In this document: one piece after another, positions 4,356 through 34,181 of the stretch | How positions within the stretch are numbered: position 1 is the first letter of the stretch | Layout of the letters: the number at the start of each line of letters is the position of its first letter | From: a virus | DNA length: 35,935 bases | Strand: one strand, 5' to 3' | IMG/VR virus record: IMGVR_UViG_3300017727_000056 | Location: 1-35,935 of that record | The notes under the pieces: generated by a model | Seen by the model: only the letters and a program-made list of their open reading frames with translations | The model's database searches: none | Told to the model about the DNA's origin: nothing | Made by a program: the position numbers and the translations under genes

Positions 4356-5448
4356 TAGTAGCTAGTTCCTCGATAGGTTGTATTTCGTCTTCGCTGTCTG
4401 CGTCGAGTGTTTCAGAGGTATTTACCATAGTTGTTTCTTTTACTAGGTAATCTGACATAACCTTATCGAGATTTTCGCCAATCCACTTTTTACGATAGTC
4501 AAGAATTTCTTCACCATCTAGTGTAGTGTATGCAAGTCTATTGCCTTGCTTTTTAATAATGCCTTTTGCTTCAAACAATTCAAGCAAACCACTATAAGGG
4601 TTCATGCCTGTTTCATAAGGAATCTTCACTTGCACACCTTCAAAAGGTTTTGCATAACGAGTCTTCATTACTTTACAACCTGCTCTAATACCCATTACTT
4701 GACTGATTTTATTGCCGTCTTCGTCTTCTTTTAGTTTCAACTTCTTCATTGCAACAACAATACTTGATGCATAGATAAAGCCTTGACCGCCACTAATCTT
4801 ATCATCTGGATCAAACATATCCTGTGATGCATAAGTGTGGTTAGTACATACTAAGCCTACATTGTGTGAGCCAATCATGTTAACAGTATTACGGACTAAT
4901 GAAGTTAGTGCTTTAGGCTTACGACCCATATCACCTTTCATATCACCTTTGTTAAATTGATCAACGTCTGTAGGTGTTAGTAACATACCTAAACTATCAA
5001 TAACAAACAACACCTTAGGACGTTCTTCTTCGTCCATTGCTTTGTAGTCAATCATAAACGTACTAATAGTTTTAGCAACGTCATCAATCATACTCATGTT
5101 TAGTTTTAATAGTTTTTCTTCTGAGGTATCAACATCAAGAGCATGTAACCAGCTTTCGTCAAGTGCATTCTCTGAGTCAATTAGTACTACAAAGATGCCT
5201 TGATCTTGTGCCGCTTTTACAATGTTACCTGCACAGATATATGATTTACCTGCACCAGACTCTCCTGCAAAAACTGTAACCTTACCCATTGGAACACCTC
5301 TATGGAAGTCACCGCTGATAAGATAGTTGAGTGCAAAGTTGCCTGTACTAATCCAGTCAGTAGGATCATTAAAACCACTACTCATACCTGAAATAGATTT
5401 TGTTAGACTGTTCCGAAACTTACTCGGATCAAACGATTTATTAGCCAT
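4348..5448 (-). CDS. uvsX: UvsX RecA-like recombinase
   Basis: A 366-residue protein with the RecA core. Walker A GESGAGKSY is at residues 62-70 and Walker B VLFVIDSLG has Asp151. TNHTYASQDMFDPDDKISGGQG covers the L2/DNA-binding region. UvsX forms filaments on single-stranded DNA and performs strand exchange for repair and recombination-dependent replication. TAGGAGAAA lies just before the ATG at 5448. It is downstream of gene 32 across a 98-base spacer with a large inverted repeat. Length is typical (T4 UvsX is about 390). Confidence 0.95.
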   Translation of the reverse strand: MANKSFDPSKFRNSLTKSISGMSSGFNDPTDWISTGNFALNYLISGDFHRGVPMGKVTVFAGESGAGKSYICAGNIVKAAQDQGIFVVLIDSENALDESWLHALDVDTSEEKLLKLNMSMIDDVAKTISTFMIDYKAMDEEERPKVLFVIDSLGMLLTPTDVDQFNKGDMKGDMGRKPKALTSLVRNTVNMIGSHNVGLVCTNHTYASQDMFDPDDKISGGQGFIYASSIVVAMKKLKLKEDEDGNKISQVMGIRAGCKVMKTRYAKPFEGVQVKIPYETGMNPYSGLLELFEAKGIIKKQGNRLAYTTLDGEEILDYRKKWIGENLDKVMSDYLVKETTMVNTSETLDADSEDEIQPIEELATND

Positions 5449-8720: not shown

Positions 8721-8728
8721 TATTTATC
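8721..8728 (-). promoter_or_regulatory. Late promoter core GATAAATA, 5 nt before ATG 8715
   Basis: Minus strand GATAAATA followed by TTAAC and the ATG. The TGA stop of gp17 is embedded in the core. No Shine-Dalgarno. Same 5-nt spacing as six other genes in the window. Confidence 0.6.
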
Positions 8729-10307
8729 AATAATTGCTACTAACGAAGATCGGCATGGGTGCATCATAATCTTCCATACTTTCCGCCTGGGTAAATGTAT
8801 TATACACTCTTGGATCCCAGTCTTTTAATACATCCATCATTCTAAGTGCAAGTAATGTTGCACTTACTAGATCATCGCTTATTCCTGATTTAGCTTGGAA
8901 GCTACTTCCTGTAGCAACAAAGCCTTTTAATTCTGACAATAGAGGCTTACTGCGTATAAGCATTTTGTCATTTTCTACCATTGTTTTTAATCGACTACAT
9001 GCTGTAATCTTAGTACCGTGTGTAGTATTAAAGCCTTTACGGAACTTGCGCACATGTCCTTTTCGAATAGGTTCAGACACAAATAGTCCTGGTATATTCT
9101 CTTCCCCGAAATCGTTTATAACGATTAGTGCCGCTTCGCCGATGCCATTGTTTTCTACACTCCAATACACGCCATTGCTATTGCCTGTTTCTTTTGTTAT
9201 ATAATTACAGATATCCGACAGTACACGTATTTGTCCTGGTATAGCAGTTTGATTGTGTTGCCACTCTGCTACTTGTTCATAACTAGGTAATTCAAATACT
9301 TGTATAGCCGCATTATCTCCGCCTGTGCCCATACTAGGATCAAGTGCAATACAATATGTATATTGCGAAGTTGGCTTTTTATACCAACGTGTTTGACCCA
9401 TATTTAATGTAGGGTTAGTGCCTTCCATGGCCGCAAGTTTAATTGAGTTGATAAGTGTTTCATCAAATACCAAAAACTCACATCCGTATTCACGTCTAAA
9501 CTTTTCTTCGCCAATACGTCCAATTTCTGCTACTTTCCATTCTTCATCACGATCAGGATGTTCTTCCCATTGTGCAACAAAACTATGAAATCCGTTTATG
9601 CCTAATTCTTGTTCATTGCCATGTTCGTCAAACTTTTGTTCTGCTTGTTTCCAAATAGTAGCAAATGTATCTTCATCACTGTTAGGTGTTGATGTAATAA
9701 TAGCACGACCACCTGTTGCTAGTGTAGGTGATATTGATGTCCAAAATTCTTCTGCAATGTTAGGTTGCACAAATGCAAACTCGTCACAGTATAGTAATGA
9801 TATGGACATACCACGTCCAGTGTTTCCAGTAGTTGTTTGACTTACGATTCTACTACCGTTTTCAAACTCAATACTACCTTTGTTGTAACTTGTAACACCT
9901 GCTCTAATATGGTCTTCACATGTTTCATATATGTAACGTATACGTGACATAATTTCTTGTGCGCCTGTATACTTGTGCGCCGCAATTAGAATAGTTTGAT
10001 CTGGATTAAACATTGCATACCACGCTAGGTATATTGCCGCACAGGTAGTCTTACCTGTTTGCCTTGGCATCATGTTTATATTAAAACGATAACTGTGGTA
10101 TGAATGCATCAAACGTATTTGATACTCATAAGGATCAAACAACAACTTACCTTGTACAGGATGTTGTATAAAAGCAAACTTACGTGCAAAGTACATATAC
10201 CCAGTATCAGGATCAGTACATGCTAATAAGTCAGCAATTTGTTCTTCATTAAATGTTTCTTTGGTATTGGCTTTTTTAGTTAATACGCCATCTAAACTTT
10301 TGCTCAT
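8727..10307 (-). CDS. 17: Terminase large subunit gp17
   Basis: A 526-residue protein with both terminase domains. Walker A MPRQTGKTT is at residues 80-88, Walker B LLYCDEFAF has Asp175/Glu176, and TSTPNS is the coupling motif. The nuclease domain begins at YCIALDPSMGTGGDNA with catalytic Asp323, and GISDDLVSATLLA near the C-terminus carries the later acidic residues. It pumps DNA into the prohead and cuts concatemers. Length is near marine T4-like gp17 (T4: 610). The upstream gene stops 8 nt before; GTTAAATA, overlapping that stop, lies 5 nt before the ATG with no ribosome site. Confidence 0.97.
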   Translation of the reverse strand: MSKSLDGVLTKKANTKETFNEEQIADLLACTDPDTGYMYFARKFAFIQHPVQGKLLFDPYEYQIRLMHSYHSYRFNINMMPRQTGKTTCAAIYLAWYAMFNPDQTILIAAHKYTGAQEIMSRIRYIYETCEDHIRAGVTSYNKGSIEFENGSRIVSQTTTGNTGRGMSISLLYCDEFAFVQPNIAEEFWTSISPTLATGGRAIITSTPNSDEDTFATIWKQAEQKFDEHGNEQELGINGFHSFVAQWEEHPDRDEEWKVAEIGRIGEEKFRREYGCEFLVFDETLINSIKLAAMEGTNPTLNMGQTRWYKKPTSQYTYCIALDPSMGTGGDNAAIQVFELPSYEQVAEWQHNQTAIPGQIRVLSDICNYITKETGNSNGVYWSVENNGIGEAALIVINDFGEENIPGLFVSEPIRKGHVRKFRKGFNTTHGTKITACSRLKTMVENDKMLIRSKPLLSELKGFVATGSSFQAKSGISDDLVSATLLALRMMDVLKDWDPRVYNTFTQAESMEDYDAPMPIFVSSNY

Positions 10308-13523: not shown

Positions 13524-15566
13524 TCATTTGCTAAATCTTATTGATAGGCCGCCTTTGAAATTTAAAGGACCTCTAATTTCTGATGGCCCTTGATTACTAG
13601 ATGTATAAGGACCTTCGTATAAAATTATTGGAGCAGAACCTGCTAAACTTTTAGTCTGTAGCCATCCTGAATCAAAAGGGTCTGAATAGTCGTCACCAAT
13701 AAACATAGTAGTAGCGTCTTGCTCTTCTAAAGTATTACTAACATAATCTTTTATATTTTCCCAATCCCAGCCTCTGTTGTGTTCTAATACAGTTGCTAAG
13801 AATCCACATGCAACTGGACATGCGGCTGAAGTACCGTTAAAATAAGTATCTTCTGCTGTTCCGCCATCTGCTGTTAAACCTGAGTAAGTATTATCAAATC
13901 TAGGTACAATACTAGAAGTATCGCTAGGTGAAGCCGCGCCTAATGTACCATCTGCTGGTGCATAAAAATCCACTGCTGGACCACAATCACTATAATATGC
14001 CTTGTTGTCAATACTACCTATAGCAGTACCTTCACTCCAGTCATCATCTAGTGCGCCAACATTAATTGCTTTAAATCTATTATCAGCTGTTGGTCCAACA
14101 CATTGTGGCCAACCAGGTCTGTTTACAGATGCATATGCATTGTAATAGTTTCCTAATTCAATTTGATTAGTGTCGTCTATAGTTGCACCACTTGAACTCC
14201 AGTGAAAGTTATCCCAATTAGGATGATCTGGTAACACCTGTTGTTGGCTGTCATTACCTGCGGCCATAACTAATATTACACCTGCGTCTGCGCATTCATT
14301 TGATGCTGTAAATAAACTATTTGGTTTAGGATAATGTTTTACACGGCCATCGCCATTAGTTCTTATAACACGATAATTGTTAGTTGCATTAGTATTAGTA
14401 GTAAATTGATAGTCAGTACCTCTAAAATTAGAATAACCACTAGTCCTAGTTGATACACGAAATCCCCAACTATTAGAACTAATAGTAGGATCTTGTTGTC
14501 CGTAAGTAGGATTAATAGGCTTGTGTAAGTGGAATATTTTCATTACATCAAAGTATTGTTCGGATCCTAAAAACGAAGAACCATATGCATCAACAACCCA
14601 CTTGTTAGCATTATATGCCCAACCATGTGTTTTACCAAATGTTAAACTTGCACATTGTGTTCCGTGTGTTCCGTCGCCTGGTCCTACAGTATTTGAACCA
14701 TGAGCTCTGTTTCTAGTATAATTGCTTGGTATAGTTACAGTACCAATACTTGCAAACTTTGCTGAACGATTAGAACTATTTGCCCACCAACTTCTTGATA
14801 CACTTTCTCCAGGAACAACAGTACCGTCCCAACGTGTAATTAATCTATTACTTGCATCTGCATTAAAATAATCAGGGTCAATATAGTATGGACTATCTAA
14901 TACTAAATCTAATACGTTACATAACGGAGAAGTAGCATTGCCTGCATCTCTGCCGTCTCTAATACTTAATGGATTGCCTGGTATAAAATCTTGTGGAACT
15001 ATGCCAGCTTCACTTCCGGCACCTGAATTAACTGTGTCATTTATAAATTCTGGATGTCCTATCCAGCTTCCGTTATCGCCTACAATAACATCAACATCTT
15101 TGCCTGTACCTCTTTGTGCAGGAATGTCTTCTACTACTGCTGACCTATCTCCGCCTGCCCAAGGATTTGCTTTTTGTCTCATACGCAACAGTTGACTTGT
15201 TACTGCGCCATTGTCGACATTTGTTGTTCCGCTATAGTTTTGACCATAAGCAAGATAATTTCTTACATTGCTAGTGTATCTATTTTTCTGTGGAAGATCA
15301 CAACGTAATTGATCTGCAGGAATTTGCATCTCTGGATAACGTGCAACATCAAGATTTATGTATTCAACTTCTGGTAGTTGCTCAACTTCTGCTTTTTCAG
15401 CATCAGTAAGCATGTATGTACCTCTTGTTGAACTTTGTAATGTATAATTTTCACAAATAACTTCTCTGTCAGGCACATTACTAATTGATGTGCTAGTAGT
15501 AAGATATTCGTGTACTTTATCAAATGCATCTTTAGATACTGCATTTATAACATAATATTTTTCCAT
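13524..15566 (-). CDS. Subtilisin-like serine protease (peptidase S8), first copy
   Basis: A 680-residue protein. A prodomain-like N-terminus (residues 1-75, with TYMLTDAEKAEVEQLP) precedes the protease. Catalytic residues visible: Asp164 in VIVGDNGSWIGHPEF, His301 in GDGTHGTQCAS, oxyanion Asn438 in MAAGNDS, Ser580 in NGTSAACP. The Asp-His interval is long, with extra loops. No signal peptide. It sits directly downstream of a fibre gene (9-nt gap) and upstream of gp4, and AAAGGTAA precedes the ATG. It may be a virion enzyme that processes fibres or digests host surface protein; this is inference. The second copy is at 30787. Confidence 0.93.
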   Translation of the reverse strand: MEKYYVINAVSKDAFDKVHEYLTTSTSISNVPDREVICENYTLQSSTRGTYMLTDAEKAEVEQLPEVEYINLDVARYPEMQIPADQLRCDLPQKNRYTSNVRNYLAYGQNYSGTTNVDNGAVTSQLLRMRQKANPWAGGDRSAVVEDIPAQRGTGKDVDVIVGDNGSWIGHPEFINDTVNSGAGSEAGIVPQDFIPGNPLSIRDGRDAGNATSPLCNVLDLVLDSPYYIDPDYFNADASNRLITRWDGTVVPGESVSRSWWANSSNRSAKFASIGTVTIPSNYTRNRAHGSNTVGPGDGTHGTQCASLTFGKTHGWAYNANKWVVDAYGSSFLGSEQYFDVMKIFHLHKPINPTYGQQDPTISSNSWGFRVSTRTSGYSNFRGTDYQFTTNTNATNNYRVIRTNGDGRVKHYPKPNSLFTASNECADAGVILVMAAGNDSQQQVLPDHPNWDNFHWSSSGATIDDTNQIELGNYYNAYASVNRPGWPQCVGPTADNRFKAINVGALDDDWSEGTAIGSIDNKAYYSDCGPAVDFYAPADGTLGAASPSDTSSIVPRFDNTYSGLTADGGTAEDTYFNGTSAACPVACGFLATVLEHNRGWDWENIKDYVSNTLEEQDATTMFIGDDYSDPFDSGWLQTKSLAGSAPIILYEGPYTSSNQGPSEIRGPLNFKGGLSIRFSK

Positions 15567-15575
15567 GCTTTACCT

Positions 15576-17024
15576 TTAATGTAAATCTACCCAACCAGTG
15601 GTACTGTCTCCTGTGTCGGCTACATATGCTTGAACCTTGCCTGTTTCGGAGTTATAAATTGTGTCTCCAAGTGCAGGTGTTAGTCCATCTCTTTGTGCAT
15701 TTGTAAAACTAGCTAATCTAAATGGACTTTGTGTTACTTCTACTCTTGTTGCGGCAGTAAGTTTAATATTAGCTTCTGAGTATAATTCTGGATCACCTGG
15801 AGCAGTTGCTATAATGTTACCTGCAACAGTTAAATCGTTGTTAACTGTAAGGTCATTTTCTACAGCAAGATCACTGCTTATTGTTACTGCTGGAGTAATT
15901 GTAATACCGCTTGAATCGTCTGTATCAATTACACTAGATGCTAGTGTAAAGTTTCCTATTTGATCACCTGGATCTTGGAATGAAAATGTACCAGCGCCGT
16001 CAGTAGTTAATACTTGTCCATTGGTACCTTCAGCAATGCCTAAGTTTAATAATGTTCTTCCTGCTAGTTGATTTGATACATGAGTTTTAACTGCACGTTC
16101 AGTAACCAATGCACTTGCACTGTTATCAGCCATAGTCTCATCGTTACTAAATTCGTCAACGTTTACACCTAGTGCCATACTAATAGCCGTCAATGAACCA
16201 AACGATGTTGGAATATTAACTAGGTCTGAGTATTGTCTTGAAAATAGTAAGTTACTAGTGTCTGTTAAATCATTTATATCTAAAGGTATTGTTGGTGTAT
16301 TAGTTAGACTACTATATGAGCCATCAAATAATGCACTGCCAGTATCAGTTAGATCACTTACATCTACTGGTATTGTTGGTTTACCTGTTAAATCTGCATA
16401 TGCTCCACTAAACAATTCAGGGGCGCCAGTAAGTGCCGCATATTGTCCATTGAATGCATCATTAATACCATATCCTGCAATAGTTGTAGGTTTGTTTGTA
16501 ACATTTATAAAATCAATACTAGTAGCTTCAACATTTCTAAATATAAAATTACCAGTACCGTCTGTGCTTAGTACTTGTCCTGCACTGCCGTCTGTAATTC
16601 CTAAATCTGTAATTGCTGATGGCAATGTTGGTCTGCCTGTTAAATCTGCATAATTACCTGAGTAAGCAACAGCGTTCAATGGATCAGTATAATTAGAAAT
16701 ATTGCCTGCTGGATCTGATGTTAATAATCTACGCCATACGTTTGCATGTGAATAATATAATGCACCAGTTTCGTGTACGTGTGCAACCATGCCGTGATAT
16801 GTAGAAGCACTAATTGCATTTAGATCTGCTTCTGTAGCAAAAACATTACTATAAAATATCTTATTTGGACCAAAGTCTATATCGGTGTTTAGTAAATTAC
16901 TGCCGTCGCCTAATATTGAATATACTTCATTGAAATTATCGTTTACTTTGTCGCCGCCGTCACGTAAGCTATCGCCTGCTCCATCATTAGGTGATACACC
17001 TATGTTAATAAGTTGTTTTGCCAT
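15576..17024 (-). CDS. Tail-fibre-like structural protein
   Basis: A 482-residue protein built of low-complexity beta modules. It starts MAKQLINIGVSPNDGAGDSL, then carries YADLTGRPTLP-type repeats (at least four variants), ITDLGITDG followed by GQVLSTDGTGNF, and a run of LAVENDLTVNNDLTVAGN. The C-terminus ATRVEVTQSPFRL with a QRDGLTP segment and GWVDLH resembles ends of marine phage fibres. Such proteins form elongated trimers for host contact. Its ATG abuts the stop of the 156-residue gene (no gap), and GGGGAC serves as a possible ribosome site. It shares modules with the fibres at 29028 and 32730. Confidence 0.8.
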   Translation of the reverse strand: MAKQLINIGVSPNDGAGDSLRDGGDKVNDNFNEVYSILGDGSNLLNTDIDFGPNKIFYSNVFATEADLNAISASTYHGMVAHVHETGALYYSHANVWRRLLTSDPAGNISNYTDPLNAVAYSGNYADLTGRPTLPSAITDLGITDGSAGQVLSTDGTGNFIFRNVEATSIDFINVTNKPTTIAGYGINDAFNGQYAALTGAPELFSGAYADLTGKPTIPVDVSDLTDTGSALFDGSYSSLTNTPTIPLDINDLTDTSNLLFSRQYSDLVNIPTSFGSLTAISMALGVNVDEFSNDETMADNSASALVTERAVKTHVSNQLAGRTLLNLGIAEGTNGQVLTTDGAGTFSFQDPGDQIGNFTLASSVIDTDDSSGITITPAVTISSDLAVENDLTVNNDLTVAGNIIATAPGDPELYSEANIKLTAATRVEVTQSPFRLASFTNAQRDGLTPALGDTIYNSETGKVQAYVADTGDSTTGWVDLH

Positions 17025-26335: not shown

Positions 26336-27963
26336 TGCAACACTTTTATGACAAACAAATTAGACGATATATTACGCAAGTAATTCGTTTACTCAGCGAA
26401 TTTGGATACAAGGATGGTAAAGACAATCTTGTAAAGATTCCAGTAATGTATGGTGATTTGACTAGACAAGTTGGTAGTATTATACGTGATAATAGTGAAA
26501 ACAAAATACCTAGTGCTCCAAGGATGGCAGTATACATAACTGGTCTAGCAATGGATACAAATAGACTTGCTGATTCAAGTTACATTAACAAACTTAATAT
26601 TCGAGAAAGAGCTTATGATAACAACGGTGATGAGTATTTAAAGGCTGAAGGCAAGAATTATACTGTTGAAAGACTAATGCCTACTCCTTATACACTTACA
26701 GTTAATGTTGATGTATGGACTACTAACACTGATCAAAAATTACAATTACTAGAACAAATACTAATGTTGTTTAATCCTAGTTTAGAAATACAAAGTACAG
26801 ACAACTATATTGATTGGACTAGTTTGAGTGTTATCAATATGACTGATATTAACTTTAGTTCGAGATCAATACCCACAGGAACAGAAACTGAAATTGATAT
26901 TGCAACACTTACTTTTGAAATGCCAATCTATATTAGCCCACCTGCAAAGGTTAAAAAGCTAGGAGTTATTACAAATATTATTACAGCAATGTTTGCCGAT
27001 GATGGTTTAGAAATTAACATAGATGACACTGCATATGCACAAAGTCTAGTTAAAGAAGCACACATTGTTGATGAAACAAAAACTAATAAACTAACAGGCA
27101 AGCGTGAAGCACTTACAACAGAAACCACGCTAATCACAACTAGTCATAACAATTACGACTTATTGTTTATGAATAATGTTGCAAGACTAATTGGCAAGAA
27201 CGCTGTCGTTGGAAGCGAAACTTGGACTGGTTATTTAAACTCTTTACCGTTTGAATTTGAATCTGGCATTACTGAATTGCGTTTACAGCGATCAAACGGA
27301 TTTGAAATTATTGGTACTGTTGCAATAAACACAACTGACGAAACAGAGTTAATGGTAAACATTGATGCAGACACACTACCTGACGATACGTATATTGAAG
27401 GTAGAACATCAATTGACTATATTATTGACCCTGCTAAGAAAAATCCAATAGATTTTGGTCTAAGTAACAATCCTAGAGTATTATTACTAGGTAATATAGG
27501 ACATGTTCAAAGAGGCAGGTTCACAACAACTACTAAAATTTTAACTTATGATACTAAGCATTTATTCTATGACGTAACTAGATTAAAGGTATTTGTAAAC
27601 GGTACCGAAGTATCAGCATCAGCTATGGACGGCGACTCATCAGTGTCGTCAACTGACACTTATATTATTAAATTTAATAGTATGTTAGATATAGGTGATG
27701 TAGTTGAGTATGAACTATACTTAGACGTAGACGGACCTGATGCATGGAAAAATGCAGATGGTACAGACTTTTCAGCAAGTGCAAACGATATTGTAGAATG
27801 GGACGGCAATAGATGGGTCAAAGTGTTTGATGCCGCAACTGCTTCTGCAGATACGTACACTACCAATCTTAACACAGGTATACAATACAAGTGGACAGGC
27901 ACTGAATGGATAATGAGCTATGAAGGTGAATATCCAGACGGCACCTGGAGAATCAATTACTAG
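26335..27963 (+). CDS. 15: Tail sheath stabiliser gp15, extended
   Basis: A 542-residue protein, twice the length of T4 gp15 (272). The first 220 residues match the family: FYDKQIRRYITQVIRLL, VKIPVMYGDLTRQ, ERLMPTPYTLTVNVDVWT, LEQILMLFNPSLEIQSTDNY, SSRSIPTGTETEIDIATLTF and ISPPAKVKKLG. The rest is a beta-rich extension ending in Trp-containing repeats (VEWDGNRWVKV, YKWTGTEWIMSY). It caps the sheath at the head end. Its start overlaps the gp14 stop by one base, so translation is coupled. Confidence 0.85.
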   Translation: MQHFYDKQIRRYITQVIRLLSEFGYKDGKDNLVKIPVMYGDLTRQVGSIIRDNSENKIPSAPRMAVYITGLAMDTNRLADSSYINKLNIRERAYDNNGDEYLKAEGKNYTVERLMPTPYTLTVNVDVWTTNTDQKLQLLEQILMLFNPSLEIQSTDNYIDWTSLSVINMTDINFSSRSIPTGTETEIDIATLTFEMPIYISPPAKVKKLGVITNIITAMFADDGLEINIDDTAYAQSLVKEAHIVDETKTNKLTGKREALTTETTLITTSHNNYDLLFMNNVARLIGKNAVVGSETWTGYLNSLPFEFESGITELRLQRSNGFEIIGTVAINTTDETELMVNIDADTLPDDTYIEGRTSIDYIIDPAKKNPIDFGLSNNPRVLLLGNIGHVQRGRFTTTTKILTYDTKHLFYDVTRLKVFVNGTEVSASAMDGDSSVSSTDTYIIKFNSMLDIGDVVEYELYLDVDGPDAWKNADGTDFSASANDIVEWDGNRWVKVFDAATASADTYTTNLNTGIQYKWTGTEWIMSYEGEYPDGTWRINY

Positions 27964-27975
27964 AATAATTACTAG
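27955..27975 (+). repeat. 9-bp direct repeat at the gp15/NUDIX junction
   Basis: AATTACTAG occurs at 27955-27963 and again at 27967-27975, 3 nt apart. The first copy contains the gp15 stop. This could be a junction scar or simple slippage; short and A/T-rich, so weak. Confidence 0.5.
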
Positions 27976-27976
27976 T

Positions 27977-28408
27977 ATGAAAGAGATTGTTTGTAGTGGT
28001 GCCCTATTTTACGCACTAAACACCAAAAGATTTTTATTTTTGCATCGTGCTAATAACAAGCGTAATAATGTTTGGGGATTAGTTGGAGGCACTAATGAAG
28101 GTGTCGAGACTCCATGGGAAGGACTTCGCAGAGAAATATCTGAAGAGATTGGTGACGTTGATATAAAGAAAACCATTCCGTTAGAAACTTTTGTAAGTAA
28201 TGATGAATACTTCCATTTTCATACATATTTGTGTGTTATTAGCGAAGAATTTATTCCTACATTAAACAAAGAACACGATGGATATGCATGGTGTAGCTTT
28301 ACAAAATGGCCTCGTCCGCTACACAATGGATTACAAAATACATTAAACAAAAGAAGTAATATTACTAAACTGAAAACAGTATTTCAAGTAATAGATCTGA
28401 TTAAATAG
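27977..28408 (+). CDS. NUDIX hydrolase
   Basis: A 143-residue protein from the ATG at 27977. The full NUDIX box Gx5Ex7REUxEExG is at residues 38-59 (G38, E44, R52-E53, E56-E57, G59). NUDIX enzymes hydrolyse nucleoside diphosphates linked to another group, including GDP-sugars, ADP-ribose and oxidised nucleotides; the GDP-mannose type is one option next to sugar genes, but no specificity residue is clear. An earlier ATG at 27920 would overlap gp15 and add residues not typical of the fold. It lies 13 nt after gp15, in the same direction. No strong ribosome site is seen. Confidence 0.88.
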   Translation: MKEIVCSGALFYALNTKRFLFLHRANNKRNNVWGLVGGTNEGVETPWEGLRREISEEIGDVDIKKTIPLETFVSNDEYFHFHTYLCVISEEFIPTLNKEHDGYAWCSFTKWPRPLHNGLQNTLNKRSNITKLKTVFQVIDLIK

Positions 28409-28416
28409 GAAAAAAT

Positions 28417-28791
28417 ATGGCAAAAGATAATGTTAAACAAACTAATTATGGATATGAAATTGTCTGGGCTTTAACAAAAGATTACTGTTCTAAAATTTTA
28501 GCATTTGAAAATCCATCAGTAAAGACTCCTTTACAGTTTCAAAAAGAAACTGAAAAAAGTTTATTTGTAAATAACGGAATGTTTCGTATTCGCTGGATTG
28601 ATACATCAGATGGCAAGCTATATGAAAAAGAGTGTGGAGAAGGAAATGTATTTCATGTCCCACCAATGATGCCTGTTAGTATTGAAAGTCTTAGTGCTGG
28701 TGCTAGTATTACACAAACAAGTAATGGTGAACGACCAGATGATAATTTTATAGTTATTCCTGCCGAGAATATTGGTAATTCTAATGTTTGA
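28417..28791 (+). CDS. Cupin-like protein
   Basis: A 124-residue protein. GYEIVWALTKDYCSKILAFE, then TEKSLFVNNGMFRIRWID and EGNVFHVPPMMPVSIESLSAGASITQTS, follow the two-motif pattern of a small cupin barrel, closest in style to the cupin of type II mannose-6-phosphate isomerases. The usual metal-binding His residues are largely missing in motif 1, so catalysis is doubtful; binding is possible. It follows the NUDIX gene by 8 nt with AGGAAAAA before the ATG, and may form a sugar-nucleotide pair with it (inference). Confidence 0.65.
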   Translation: MAKDNVKQTNYGYEIVWALTKDYCSKILAFENPSVKTPLQFQKETEKSLFVNNGMFRIRWIDTSDGKLYEKECGEGNVFHVPPMMPVSIESLSAGASITQTSNGERPDDNFIVIPAENIGNSNV

Positions 28792-29038
28792 TATTAAAAA
28801 AATAGAATTGTATCAAAAAGAAATGACAGACTTTAAAACTAAAGCCTCTAAGATAAAGATACCTGCAACACGTAAAGAAGTTGACGAACTACTTTTTAAT
28901 CTTGAAAAACAAATTAAACTTATTAATGATGCACATAGTCCTAATATGACATCAAAAGCCAATCCAAAATCAGTTCATGAAAATATTGCAACTACTGCTA
29001 ATATTCGCTGGAAGTTAAAAACTCTACTTAGAGACTAG
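28784..29038 (+). CDS. Small helical hypothetical protein (84 residues)
   Basis: The start is the ATG at 28784, overlapping the cupin gene by 8 nt. The product is Lys/Glu-rich and helical (IELYQKEMTDFKTKASKIK, VDELLFNLEKQIKLINDAH), likely a coiled coil, with no family recognised. A TTG 12 nt upstream is less likely. Its end overlaps the opposite-strand fibre by 11 nt. Coupling to the cupin gene supports expression. Confidence 0.65.
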   Translation: MFDIKKIELYQKEMTDFKTKASKIKIPATRKEVDELLFNLEKQIKLINDAHSPNMTSKANPKSVHENIATTANIRWKLKTLLRD

Positions 29039-30761
29039 ATAGATCTTTAATAGTAATAGCACCAACCATTGCCGAGTGTGATGTACACTGATATCTATAA
29101 TTAGGTGGACTATTTACTGCTTCAGGTACTGTCCAGTATAAAACACCACTTGATTGATTTTGTGCATTAGATCCAGTTGTTACTGCACCTGCACTAGTAA
29201 CATGTGTTAATCCTGTGTTGTATGCACTACCGGTACTATCTTGTATTTCAAAAGGATGTCCGCCGATATCATCTAAATCAAACGCATATGTGTGTCCACT
29301 TATAAGATAAATTGTTGGATTATTGCCACTGTAGTGTGGAGCAAACAGATATGCACTTGCCGCATCGTTATCAACTTTAAACATAGTTATTGCTGGCATG
29401 TATATTTGAGCAAAGTTAAATCCTGATGAGTTGGATGCTGTTACTACTTCACCTAATTGACTAAAGTTAGAAATACCTGACGATATTGTACTAAATTGTA
29501 ATGTTCCTGAACCGTTAGTAGTAAGTACTTGACCGTTATTACCATCAGTGTTTGGAAAGGTATATGTACTAGTTGTTCCTACTTGTAGAGTTGAAATGTT
29601 AGCCTGATTAATTGCAGTTGTTCCTGAAGATTGTAATACTAAGTTGCCACTAGCATTATTAATTGAATTACCGTTAGTATCTAAGTTTCCGCCAAGTTGC
29701 GGAGATGTATCTTCAATAAGACTGGTAATGCCACCGCCGCCACCGCCACCAGTTACTGTAGTAAAACTAAAGTTTCCACTGCCGTCAGTTGTTAGTACTT
29801 GTCCATTAGTACCGTCAGTAATTCCTAAGTCTGTTATTGCTGTAGGTGAATCAGTGATTCCGTAACCTGACAATGAACTTGGTGTTGCTGTTAAATCACT
29901 AAATGCAACACTAGTAAGATATGAACTTAGATCTGGTGGAGTATATCTAAACACACCAGATGTATTATCGTATGTTATTGAACCATCACCGTCAGCACTA
30001 AGTTCAATGCCAATACTTAAACTTGCTAGTGTAAGTGTGCTTGGTGTGTTGTTAAAGTTTGTATAATCTAAATAGTATGATCCATCAAATCCATCTAATG
30101 TGTCTGCGTCTGTGCCTGCGCCACCTGTTGTTGCGTCAATACCTGGTGCCCATTTATTACCGTCCCATTTTAACACACTGCCTGTAGAAGGACTACTAGA
30201 AGTAGTATCAACATCTGATAAAAAGTTAATACTAAAAGCGTCCATATTAATTTGAACGTTACTTGTACCACTAGCAATGTTAGTTGAGATATTTGCACCA
30301 CCTAATAAGTTTAGTTGGCTTTCACCAGATGCTTCTACTGATCCATCATCACTTATAATAGTTTTAAAAGTATCACCTGATCCACCGCCTGCACTATCAA
30401 ATGTTAGTGTATTTGTTAATGTATCAACAGTAATATTCATACCATTGCCAGCAACTAGTATCAAGTCATCTGCCGCCTGGTCTGCTGATGCAGTACCTTC
30501 TCCTTGGACAATTACATTTCCAAAACTCATTGCAGACATATTTACAAAAGAAAGGCCATCTGCTACTGTGTTTACTGCAAGAAACTTATTAGCACTTCCT
30601 GTATAAGAACTTGGAGTATCTGTAAGATTTAAAAACGTAGGAGTAGCACTATCAGATATATTACTGATTACTATCCATGCGGTCCCGTCCCAGCGCCAAG
30701 TTGTGCCGCCTTGTGTAAACTCGTCATTTAATGACGGATTTATTGGATAATTAATTGCCAT
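29028..30761 (-). CDS. Tail-fibre-like protein with C-terminal cupredoxin-like domain
   Basis: A 577-residue protein. It opens MAINYPINPSLNDEFTQGG with TWRWDGTAWIVI, then low-complexity beta modules (SSYLTSVAFSDL, ITDLGITDG with GQVLTTDGSGNFSF). About the last 110 residues are different: HTYAFDLDDIGGHPFEIQD then YRYQCTSHSAMVGAITIKD. His502, Cys559, His562 and Met565 reproduce the type-1 copper ligand order, with the C-x2-H-x2-M spacing of amicyanin. AAAGGATT precedes the ATG and GGTAAATA lies upstream. Virion location is inferred from the fibre repeats; copper binding is untested. Confidence 0.78.
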   Translation of the reverse strand: MAINYPINPSLNDEFTQGGTTWRWDGTAWIVISNISDSATPTFLNLTDTPSSYTGSANKFLAVNTVADGLSFVNMSAMSFGNVIVQGEGTASADQAADDLILVAGNGMNITVDTLTNTLTFDSAGGGSGDTFKTIISDDGSVEASGESQLNLLGGANISTNIASGTSNVQINMDAFSINFLSDVDTTSSSPSTGSVLKWDGNKWAPGIDATTGGAGTDADTLDGFDGSYYLDYTNFNNTPSTLTLASLSIGIELSADGDGSITYDNTSGVFRYTPPDLSSYLTSVAFSDLTATPSSLSGYGITDSPTAITDLGITDGTNGQVLTTDGSGNFSFTTVTGGGGGGGITSLIEDTSPQLGGNLDTNGNSINNASGNLVLQSSGTTAINQANISTLQVGTTSTYTFPNTDGNNGQVLTTNGSGTLQFSTISSGISNFSQLGEVVTASNSSGFNFAQIYMPAITMFKVDNDAASAYLFAPHYSGNNPTIYLISGHTYAFDLDDIGGHPFEIQDSTGSAYNTGLTHVTSAGAVTTGSNAQNQSSGVLYWTVPEAVNSPPNYRYQCTSHSAMVGAITIKDLSSL

Positions 30762-30786: not shown

Positions 30787-32730
30787 TTATGTTGTGTTTG
30801 CTTCAATTGTTACTTCAACATGCGCTCGCTGACTGTCTAAAGTAAGTTTAAAAATTTCGTCGTCTTCTACTACTGTATCTTGTAAAAACGTAAATGTTTG
30901 TGATGCTGTGCCGCCAACTATATTAAAATTGCCAACTAAAGAGGCTCCTTGAATATCTGCGGCTTGTACTCCAGTAATTGTATACGGTACTAATGTACCA
31001 TCATCAATGCCTACTGTAGTTAACGTAACAATAATAGTTGCGCCTTCAATATCTGTCGATGTACTTGCATCTAAATGATAATGCTGGTAAGCCATACCGT
31101 TCTGTGAAACAATAAATCCATTTAATGTGTTATCAGGTACGCCGCCATAACGTAGCGGCTGTTTTCCGTATCTGCAAACAGTGTGTGAATTTGTTCCGCC
31201 CATTAAACTTGTAGTACTGTTAGTATAATCATCTGCTAGTCCAGTATCTGATATTACACTAGTTGAATCGCCAAGCAATACTGCTTTTAATTGTGCAGGA
31301 GTCATCCACGGTTTATTTCCTAAGTGGAGTGCCGCAATGCCTGCAATTTGTGGACTTGCCATACTAGTTCCACTAATGCTCATTATTTTAAAACTGTCAT
31401 TGTCTGGATAATCATACTGTGTATAATTAAATGTGTTATTAAAATTACTAGCAGTACTCATAATATTTGTACCTGGTGCCCAAATATCAACAGCTGGACC
31501 TCGCACACTAGAAGCCGCAGGCCTGTCGTGGTATACTGTTACGCCATCAACAACTTCTAATTGTACAGCTGAATCTATATTACCAACATACAATGCTGTG
31601 TCTGCATACGGAGACCCTGGACGATGATAAAATCTTGTCCCATTAGACATTGTTACTTGATTGTCAAAGTCTGGTCCTGTAGCAATGTCTGACTTGTAAT
31701 AACTGTTGCCTGAAGCAATACATACTACTATTCCATCACTAACCATATCTTCTATTTCTGCATCAACTGATGCTACTTGGCTTGTAAATCTTCTAAACTG
31801 TCCTAATGGAGGAACAACTCCGCTAGTGGCCCATACTTCGTTATCTGTAGTGTAGCCAGCATCGCCAAAGTTCCATGCTGATCCTCTGTAAACTCCACTT
31901 ACTGGATTACCGGAAGCAGTACCTTGATATCCCCAACTCATGTTAACAACTGTAGGCCTTTTGTATCCTGTTGCAGTATCACCTTTTTGATTATGCCATA
32001 ATCTAATAGTATCAAATGCATCAGTAATTGGAATGCCACCGTCATCGCCGGCGCCTTCTAATCCACCTAGCTTCTGTGAATATACTTTAGCACGTTTAGC
32101 CCAACCATATGTTTTGCCACATGCAATACCTGCACAGTGAGTACCGTGGCCATCATAATCTCTATAATGATTTACACTTTGTGTTCCTGGTAATCCACTT
32201 GCCGCATACCAATCTATTTGTTCAACTCTTGATACACCGTCTTGGATAAATTCAGGATGATCAACTTGTAGTCCACTATCTTGTGTAACAACATCAACAC
32301 CTAGTCCATCTAATCCGTATTCAAAAAATCCTGTATTAGGTGCTACGTTTTTTACAAAGTTCCAGTCTTGTGTGTTTCCAAAAGAGTTTAAATCTTGTAT
32401 ACATCTTGGTAGTGCCCAGTTAACTTCATTGTTTAAACTTTGCGAACCTCTATAAAAATTAGCATCTTGATATGCATTGAGTACTAGTTCTATATCATCT
32501 CTTTGATCTGGTGGTATTTCAACTGCACGTATTCTGTCGTCTGCTTCTAATGCAACTGCTTCTTCGTCAGTAAGCATAAAATGTGTTTGAACTTTTGATC
32601 CAAGTCTTGGATTAGCAACATCAACTGTTCGATTAGGAATAGGACCTGCGCCAGAACTAGCAGTAATCTCTGCTTCAATTGTTGGCAAGTCTTCTCTGTT
32701 ATGAACTATAACTGTATATTCTTTTTCCAT
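30787..32730 (-). CDS. Subtilisin-like serine protease (peptidase S8), second copy
   Basis: A 647-residue protein. N-terminal prodomain-like part (residues 1-75, with FMLTDEEAVALEADDRIRAV) resembles that of the protease at 13524. Catalytic set: Asp151 in VVTQDSGLQVDHPEF, His198 in GHGTHCAG, Asn342 in ASGNS, Ser456 in SGTSMASP; closer to standard subtilases than the first copy. After the protease, about residues 530-647 form a beta-sandwich-like end (VVEDDEIFKLTLDSQ), similar to Calx-beta style modules. Its ATG overlaps the upstream fibre stop (TAATG). No signal peptide. Role inferred: fibre maturation or host-surface digestion. Confidence 0.94.
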   Translation of the reverse strand: MEKEYTVIVHNREDLPTIEAEITASSGAGPIPNRTVDVANPRLGSKVQTHFMLTDEEAVALEADDRIRAVEIPPDQRDDIELVLNAYQDANFYRGSQSLNNEVNWALPRCIQDLNSFGNTQDWNFVKNVAPNTGFFEYGLDGLGVDVVTQDSGLQVDHPEFIQDGVSRVEQIDWYAASGLPGTQSVNHYRDYDGHGTHCAGIACGKTYGWAKRAKVYSQKLGGLEGAGDDGGIPITDAFDTIRLWHNQKGDTATGYKRPTVVNMSWGYQGTASGNPVSGVYRGSAWNFGDAGYTTDNEVWATSGVVPPLGQFRRFTSQVASVDAEIEDMVSDGIVVCIASGNSYYKSDIATGPDFDNQVTMSNGTRFYHRPGSPYADTALYVGNIDSAVQLEVVDGVTVYHDRPAASSVRGPAVDIWAPGTNIMSTASNFNNTFNYTQYDYPDNDSFKIMSISGTSMASPQIAGIAALHLGNKPWMTPAQLKAVLLGDSTSVISDTGLADDYTNSTTSLMGGTNSHTVCRYGKQPLRYGGVPDNTLNGFIVSQNGMAYQHYHLDASTSTDIEGATIIVTLTTVGIDDGTLVPYTITGVQAADIQGASLVGNFNIVGGTASQTFTFLQDTVVEDDEIFKLTLDSQRAHVEVTIEANTT

Positions 32731-34181
32731 TACCCTGCGGTTCCGTCATCTAAGTTTATCCAGGCACCGTTCTGTCTGCCTTGGAATCTATTGACGGTAG
32801 TGTTATATACAACATCACCATCAAGTGCGGCGACTGTGTTTCTTTCGTTAGTTGTTAATCTTGGAAATCTAAAAGCGCCTGTGCCTTCAACTATTAGTCC
32901 ATCAGTAGTTGTAATAGTTAAAGTTGACGAAGTATCAATTGTTGGCGCACTAGTGCCTGCTGTTATAAAATCTCCTGAAGTTACTGTAGCAAAAGTAACT
33001 GCGTTTGTTGTATTCAAATCTTGGTTAAATGATGATCCGCCTGAGCCTGCTGGCGGAGTATATTGAAAGTTTCCTGTTGTATTATCATAAAGTAAGTCAC
33101 CATCGCCTGATGCGGAATTAACTGTTACACTAAATGCTGTTAGGTCAACGCCTGAATCTGCAAAACTAAAATTGCCTGCGCCATCAGTTGTAAGAACTTG
33201 ATCAGCAGTGCCGTCTGTAATACCTAAGTCTGTAAGTGTTGTGGGAATGTTTATTGCTGGAGTGTTGATTAAATCAGCATAGTCACCTGTAGTAGCAACT
33301 GTAGCAAATGTTGGCTTGTTTATAACATCAGCATAGTCAACTACAATGTCTGGTGCGTCCGGTGTAACAGCCGCAGGTTGTACCCATTGTCCTGTATCCT
33401 CGTCAACAATGTATACTAATAATCTACCTGTAGTACTTTGAAACCAAAGGTCGCCACTTGTAGGACTAACTGGTGCAGTGTCTGAAACTTCTATTGAAGC
33501 ACCATCTGGGCTTGGAGCAACTCCGCCACCGCCACCACTTCCTGGATAAGCTCTAGTACCACTATTGCCCATACCAAGATGATTAATACAATAATAGTAA
33601 AGCGTTTCTGGTGTTGAAGATGTAATTGTTATTTGTATTGCACGGTGAGTACTACTTGCAAAATTAGCAATATAATAAGTTCTTGTTACTGGTTCGTGTT
33701 CTAGCAAATAAATTACACCGTCTGTGTAAGTTATATGATCTGAACCAGCGTGATCAACATGTTCAACTGGATCTATTGCTGAGAATTCTAAGGGATGTTG
33801 ATTAAATACTGCGCCGCCAATTGGATTTGGAAAATATAAATTTGTAGGATCAGTTTGATCAAAGTAATAAGTGTAACCTACAATCCAATCAATTGTTGGA
33901 CGCTTTGATCCATTTAAATTATAAACGTTAGCAGTATCTTCATCGTTTCTTGATACTGTTACAGGATATTTAACTGTAGCAATTTGTTGGCTTGCGGCAT
34001 TTCTTCTAATATTATTTTCAGTTACAACTTCAAATCCACTACGTATTGTTCCATCGTACACACGTAACGTTTTAGCTGATTTACTATAATATAACTCACC
34101 GCTAGAACCGATATTTCTGTTTAGAAAGTCCTCTGGTCTAGGTATAAGTCTAATTCTATCTACAATTGGGCTTTGGCTCAT
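32730..34181 (-). CDS. Fibre-like structural protein with internal cupredoxin-like segment
   Basis: A 483-residue protein. N-terminal IPRPEDFLNRNIGSSGELYY with LRVYDG is followed by a segment (about 95-205) with His129 in NQHPLEF and Cys198, His201, Met204 in YYYCINHLGMG, again a type-1 copper ligand set with C-x2-H-x2-M spacing. A Gly-rich linker (GSGGGGG) and SGDLWFQSTTGRLLVYI module lead to fibre repeats (LTDLGITDG, QVLTTDGAGNFSF) and an end typical of marine phage fibres (GDVVYNTTVNRFQGRQNG). CGGAGAT precedes the ATG. The next gene is the second subtilase. Confidence 0.76.
   Translation of the reverse strand: MSQSPIVDRIRLIPRPEDFLNRNIGSSGELYYSKSAKTLRVYDGTIRSGFEVVTENNIRRNAASQQIATVKYPVTVSRNDEDTANVYNLNGSKRPTIDWIVGYTYYFDQTDPTNLYFPNPIGGAVFNQHPLEFSAIDPVEHVDHAGSDHITYTDGVIYLLEHEPVTRTYYIANFASSTHRAIQITITSSTPETLYYYCINHLGMGNSGTRAYPGSGGGGGVAPSPDGASIEVSDTAPVSPTSGDLWFQSTTGRLLVYIVDEDTGQWVQPAAVTPDAPDIVVDYADVINKPTFATVATTGDYADLINTPAINIPTTLTDLGITDGTADQVLTTDGAGNFSFADSGVDLTAFSVTVNSASGDGDLLYDNTTGNFQYTPPAGSGGSSFNQDLNTTNAVTFATVTSGDFITAGTSAPTIDTSSTLTITTTDGLIVEGTGAFRFPRLTTNERNTVAALDGDVVYNTTVNRFQGRQNGAWINLDDGTAG

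What the first reader, a model, noticed from the sequence alone, without database searches (positions are those of the whole stretch)
29028..29370. Fibre C-terminal domain with a complete type-1 copper ligand set
His502, Cys559, His562 and Met565 follow the cupredoxin order, and YRYQCTSHSAMVGAITIKD closely resembles the C-terminal copper loop of amicyanin (C-x2-H-x2-M then G and a beta strand). A copper or redox protein domain at the tip of a phage fibre would be unusual: it might bind metal, use copper for folding, or exploit a metal-rich host receptor.
Basis: partly seen in the sequence, partly recalled or inferred. Interest (0 to 1): 0.7.

Follow-up and report, generated by a model that had tools for sequence, protein, structure and literature searches.

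The report
Blue-copper-type domain on phage fibre
The end of this marine phage's tail-fibre protein is a cupredoxin, the fold of "blue copper" electron-carrier proteins, with all four metal-holding residues kept intact in hundreds of marine phage relatives, so these virus particles probably carry copper (or a similar metal) in their tails, although no one has yet measured it.

Summary
ORF 29028-30761(-) encodes a 577-aa fibre-like protein. Its residues 454-577 form a confidently predicted domain (pLDDT 93) whose PDB matches are overwhelmingly cupredoxins. His502, Cys559, His562 and Met565 are present. They are kept in all 80 close relatives. In 25 divergent homologues at 26-68% identity to the window, the only invariant columns are these four plus one Pro and one Tyr. 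With the ligand columns masked in the search profile, 156 of 157 domains still carry the copper loop. A relative aligns to amicyanin at 3.6e-6 with all four copper ligands in register.

The domain is not unusual among marine phages: it is the C-terminal part of PHROG 677, with 318 cyanophage records matching. "Tip" is not shown, because the domain sits at the start, middle or end of different fibre and baseplate proteins, and it is also fused to a subtilase. A second copy lies in the window at 33561-33944(-) (H129, C198, H201, M204).

I found no paper describing a cupredoxin in a phage virion. Metal identity and function are untested; a rigid metal-locked docking module is my best guess.

The parts
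29028..30761 (-). 577-aa tail-fibre-like protein carrying the domain at its C-terminus
   Evidence: ORF; PHROG 677 C-terminal part, 6.9e-32, and PHROG 9729 tail fibre
29031..29402 (-). cupredoxin domain, residues 454-577
   Evidence: AlphaFold2 pLDDT 93.3; PDB fold matches mostly cupredoxins
29256..29258 (-). His502, N-terminal type-1 ligand (motif GHPFEI)
   Evidence: invariant in A2; the equivalent His of relative L273 aligns to the His of amicyanin
29067..29087 (-). copper loop C559-x2-H562-x2-M565
   Evidence: invariant in A2; 156 of 157 domains in the masked control; spacing x2/x2 in 179 of 181
32730..34181 (-). 483-aa fibre/baseplate protein carrying the second cupredoxin-like domain
   Evidence: PHROG 708 baseplate wedge and PHROG 9729 tail fibre
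33561..33944 (-). second domain with H129, C198, H201, M204
   Evidence: family HMM 4.4e-15; not recognised by Pfam; not folded
30787..32730 (-). subtilase (S8) gene between the two cupredoxin genes
   Evidence: PF00082 2.7e-27; PHROG 9158, whose profile carries the cupredoxin domain at 590-695

Best explanation
Residues 454-577 are a true cupredoxin domain with an intact mononuclear type-1 metal site (His502, Cys559, His562, Met565, amicyanin loop spacing). It was presumably taken from a cellular cupredoxin and is used as a mobile building block in the fibres and baseplates of marine tailed phages. Most likely the site is filled by copper, or by Zn or Cu(I) in the host cytoplasm, and the metal locks the beta-sandwich into a rigid, stable module that docks to a partner in the tail or on the cell. 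Shown here: fold prediction, homology, conservation of the ligands, modular spread. Inferred: metal occupancy, copper as the metal, virion location, structural/docking role.
For: Fold: pLDDT 93.3. Foldseek top hits are almost all cupredoxins. VIA Z 9.6, rmsd 2.6 over 97 residues, to residues 24-136 of 2dv6, and Z 11.3 to NirK 3wi9. Sequence: the A2 profile hits Cu nitrite reductase 3e-8, plastocyanin 1.7e-6, amicyanin 2e-5 and rusticyanin 3e-5. Single member L273 hits amicyanin at 3.6e-6 with four ligands aligned and passes the PF00127 cut-off (27.8 over 21.2 bits), as does the P-SSM2 fibre. Ligands are the most conserved columns and survive the masked control. The ligand Cys is the only Cys in 23 of 26 full-length fibres, which argues against a disulfide. 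Modularity: the domain is C-terminal in gp9-like proteins but N-terminal or internal in P-SCSP2, P-SSM2, Sf-CH8 and P-HM2. In the window family the domain is the most conserved region (with ascertainment bias).
Against: The best VIA match (NirK residues 162-312) is to a second domain that, from my own knowledge, carries no type-1 site, so the fold match alone does not prove the site. The window sequence itself scores below the Pfam cut-off (13.9 of 21.2 bits). One relative lost Cys and His (L275) and one ends before the loop (L290; possibly an assembly break). Loci were found partly with patterns that include ligand residues, so residual bias remains. When the profile was widened once more, ligand conservation fell to 72-78% of clusters (iteration 2), probably because unrelated beta-sandwich repeats were drawn in. 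A docking role is inferred only from domain position and conservation.
Confidence: 0.6

Rival explanations
1. Copper Trojan horse: copper carried on the fibre is recognised by, or shuttled to, a host copper-uptake receptor, as proposed for iron on HxH fibres.
For: Marine fibres with HxH iron sites have been proposed to exploit siderophore receptors (PMC11705849). The ligands here are strictly conserved.
Against: The domain is conserved rather than variable, and it is found in gp9-like baseplate connectors and internal fibre positions, where it need not face the cell. Type-1 sites bury their metal (own knowledge).
Confidence: 0.12
2. Redox function: the domain passes electrons to or from a host surface protein or senses redox/oxygen on contact.
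For: Complete type-1 set identical in spacing to amicyanin; invariant Met axial ligand.
Against: No redox partner or second redox centre was seen among the proteins scanned. Redox activity was not testable.
Confidence: 0.08
3. The site is a structural zinc or other metal site, or is filled by whatever thiophilic metal is at hand; copper is incidental.
For: Phage structural proteins fold in the cytoplasm, where free copper is scarce (own knowledge). Recombinant cupredoxins are known to pick up zinc (own knowledge).
Against: Cys-His2-Met is the classic copper set, and an axial Met is unusual for structural zinc (own knowledge).
Confidence: 0.17
4. Fossil ligands: the residues are kept for packing, not for metal.
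For: A single natural loss (L275) shows the fold can survive without Cys and His.
Against: Four chemically distinct metal-binding residues are the most conserved columns at 26-68% identity.
Confidence: 0.03

Closest known systems
Amicyanin / plastocyanin / rusticyanin (cupredoxins, PF00127)
   Same: Fold; order and identity of the four ligands; C-x2-H-x2-M loop as in amicyanin; GHxFxI around the first His as in rusticyanin
   Different: Part of a 577-aa phage fibre rather than a free electron carrier; HP instead of HN after the first ligand; longer insert between ligand 1 and the loop
PHROG 677, 'baseplate wedge tail fiber protein connector' of cyanophages (gp9-like)
   Same: The C-terminal domain is homologous, 1.4e-28, with the same ligands
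   Different: The window protein lacks the PHROG 677 N-terminus, which sits in another gene, 15576-17024(-)
Iron-binding HxH phage fibres (T4 gp37, alterophage R22Y)
   Same: Metal ligands within a tail fibre of a phage
   Different: Those use HxH pairs (PMC11705849); here one Cys, two His and one Met in a globular domain, and no HxH motif

Membership tests
Cupredoxin superfamily, type-1 copper | Greek-key cupredoxin beta-sandwich | tested here: met
   AlphaFold2 pLDDT 93.3; PDB matches mostly cupredoxins
Cupredoxin superfamily, type-1 copper | His ... Cys-x2-4-His-x2-4-Met in order, His before a strand, Cys at the end of the penultimate strand | tested here: met
   Sequence and DSSP of the model; ligands aligned to amicyanin through relative L273
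Cupredoxin superfamily, type-1 copper | Ligand conservation across homologues | tested here: met
   80 of 80 close relatives, A2 invariant columns, 156 of 157 in the masked control
Cupredoxin superfamily, type-1 copper | Four ligands within bonding distance of one metal | tested here: inconclusive
Cupredoxin superfamily, type-1 copper | Binds copper, blue absorbance near 600 nm | not testable with these tools
   Needs purified protein
Pfam PF00127 Copper-bind (curated model) | Score above the gathering cut-off, 21.2 bits | tested here: not met
   Window domain 13.9 bits. Homologues L273 (27.8) and the P-SSM2 fibre (23.3) pass
PHROG 677 | Match to the C-terminal part of the profile | tested here: met
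   1.4e-28 over profile positions 303-410
PHROG 677 | Match over the whole profile including the N-terminal 45 positions | tested here: not met
   The N-terminus matches ORF 15576-17024(-) instead
HxH iron-binding fibres | HxH motifs in the fibre | tested here: not met
   The five His of the protein are at 476, 490, 502, 520 and 562

The most novel reading that the evidence does not exclude
Marine T4-like and related phages build true blue-copper centres into their tails, several per fibre and many per particle, so that copper gates or powers a step of infection and phage particles form part of the ocean's copper-binding pool.
Probability: 0.2. Interest if true: 0.85.

Novelty: new variant of a known kind. 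Interest (0 to 1): 0.62.

Why it matters
Metal sites in phage tails known to me are mainly HxH iron sites and zinc sites. A complete type-1 copper set kept in the fibre and baseplate proteins of abundant ocean phages would be a different metal chemistry in a virion. It would be testable at once in cultured cyanophages such as Syn9, P-SSM2 and P-SSM4, and it would matter for phage stability, adsorption and ocean trace-metal budgets. It also gives a name to the C-terminal domain of a large 'connector' family.

Tried and rejected
Disulfide use of Cys559: rejected, because it is the only Cys in the protein and in 23 of 26 full-length relatives. Chance motif: rejected by conservation and the masked control. 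Receptor-binding tip: not supported, since the domain's position in the chain varies and it is the most conserved rather than the most variable part (biased because relatives were found through this domain). Single-sequence PDB search with the window domain gave nothing useful; family profiles were needed. Widening the profile a third time drew in other repeats and was not used (iteration 2). Full-length fibre model: mean pLDDT 55, only the C-terminal domain is reliable. Paper searches for cupredoxin or plastocyanin-like domains in phage virions found no such report in the open library; subscription papers are not held, so this is weak evidence of novelty. The cryo-EM paper on podovirus P-SCSP1u reports the distal fibres unresolved and does not mention cupredoxin or plastocyanin. 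Genome scan: nine hits in cellular assemblies, several of them probably phage contigs in MAGs; not resolved.

Full report
What is there. The window is a 35,935-base virus record with myovirus tail genes: sheath, tube, sheath stabiliser and baseplate proteins. Its terminase is closest, at 53% identity, to Pseudomonas jumbo phages of the PA5oct group, while its fibres resemble those of marine cyanophages. ORF 29028-30761(-) encodes 577 residues. The four residues named in the finding are at the stated positions, and Cys559 is the only cysteine of the protein.

Is it more than chance? The bare pattern is rare in shuffles (45 of 100,000), but conservation is the real test. In 80 IMG/VR relatives at 57-99% identity all four residues are kept. 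Divergent cyanophage proteins (Syn9, P-SSM4, P-SSM2, S-RIM14, S-N03, S-H9-1, P-HM2, and the podovirus P-SCSP2) keep the same pattern. In an alignment of 25 sequences that are 26-68% identical to the window, the only invariant columns are His502, Pro503, Tyr557, Cys559, His562 and Met565. Among 30 clusters below 60% mutual identity the four ligands are among the five most conserved columns. To guard against circularity I masked the ligand regions in the profile and searched again: 156 of 157 unique domains still carried C-x2-H-x2..5-M. Some bias remains because two of the six peptide patterns that fetched the first loci contained ligand residues. The single exception, L275, has lost the Cys and His; a further relative found through the N-terminus, L290, ends before the loop.

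Fold. AlphaFold2 on the 46-sequence alignment gives pLDDT 93.3. In the PDB the best matches are almost all cupredoxins: amicyanin, Cu nitrite reductases, laccases, a Nitrosopumilus cupredoxin. VIA-align gives Z 11.3 (rmsd 2.4, 108 residues) to NirK 3wi9 and Z 9.6 (rmsd 2.6, 97 residues) to residues 24-136 of 2dv6. The NirK match is to its second domain, which to my knowledge has no type-1 site, so the fold alone does not prove the site. In the model His502 lies just before a strand, Cys559 ends the next-to-last strand, and His562 and Met565 lie in the loop before the last strand, as in amicyanin. I had no coordinates with which to measure distances.

Homology. A profile of 25 divergent members finds Cu nitrite reductase (3e-8), plastocyanin (1.7e-6), amicyanin (2e-5) and rusticyanin (3e-5) in the PDB. 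The single relative L273 finds amicyanin at 3.6e-6, and in the alignment with 2gb2 the His, Cys, His and Met fall on the corresponding residues of amicyanin. L273 and the P-SSM2 fibre pass the curated PF00127 cut-off; the window sequence itself does not (13.9 of 21.2 bits). So it is a divergent cupredoxin whose membership is shown through intermediates.

Where it occurs. The domain is the C-terminal part of PHROG 677, the gp9-like 'baseplate wedge tail fiber protein connector' of cyanophages, and 318 cyanophage and marine virus records match it. It is mobile. It is C-terminal in gp9-like proteins, N-terminal in P-SCSP2, internal or repeated in P-SSM2 and P-HM2 fibres, and fused to the C-terminus of a subtilase in phage ACG-2014e. 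In the window the subtilase gene 30787-32730(-) lies between two cupredoxin-bearing fibre genes. The second, ORF 32730-34181(-), has a more divergent copy with H129, C198, H201 and M204. Its relatives carry the C-x2-H-x2-M loop in 62 of 66 unique matches, and the four without it look like unrelated repeats. In locus L289 both copies sit on one 732-residue protein. Fibres sharing the middle of this protein but lacking the domain also exist (L291, L292).

How it probably works. The four ligands are under the strongest constraint in the domain, there is no second cysteine for a disulfide in most relatives, and the domain is used in many positions along tail proteins. A metal-locked rigid module fits best. 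Copper is the natural guess from the ligand set, but zinc or Cu(I) loading in the cytoplasm is possible. The domain is the best conserved part of the window family's fibre (biased because relatives were found through it), which fits docking to a constant partner better than variable receptor recognition. A copper version of the iron Trojan-horse idea (PMC11705849) and a redox role are possible but have no direct support.

Novelty. The fold and the ligand set are known; their use as a recurrent module of phage tail proteins does not appear in the open-access papers I could search. Because PF00127 recognises the P-SSM2 fibre, domain databases probably already mark some members. I therefore call it a new variant of a known kind.

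Noticed in passing
30787-32730(-): Subtilase (S8) with an intact-looking His (GHGTHCAG) and Ser (GTSMASP) motif in a tail gene cluster, directly upstream of the cupredoxin fibre. Phage ACG-2014e fuses an S8 protease to the cupredoxin domain, and in S-H9-1 a protein annotated as a subtilisin-like protease matches it.
   Followed up: partly
13524-15566(-): A second PHROG 9158 protein (680 aa, 3.2e-76), a relative of the subtilase-bearing ORF 30787-32730 by profile; not scanned for a protease domain.
   Followed up: no
15576-17024(-): Carries the N-terminal 45 positions of PHROG 677 that the cupredoxin fibre lacks, so the gp9-like anchor and the cupredoxin domain are on separate genes here.
   Followed up: partly
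28417-28791(+): Cupin matched by PHROG 7851 'cysteine dioxygenase' (5.4e-10) next to a short ORF (27920-28408) that looks like a NUDIX hydrolase by eye.
   Followed up: no
8727-10307(-): Terminase closest to PA5oct-type Pseudomonas jumbo phages and a Sinorhizobium jumbo phage (48-53%), although the fibres resemble those of cyanophages.
   Followed up: no
L275 frame 1, and L290 near position 4600: The only two relatives found without the copper loop: L275 by substitution (GNQGSM), L290 by early termination of the reading frame.
   Followed up: partly
BFVD hits: 'Beta-sandwich proteins' of Pithovirus and Marseillevirus-like metagenomic viruses match the same fold at 1e-5 to 5e-4; their ligands were not examined.
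   Followed up: no
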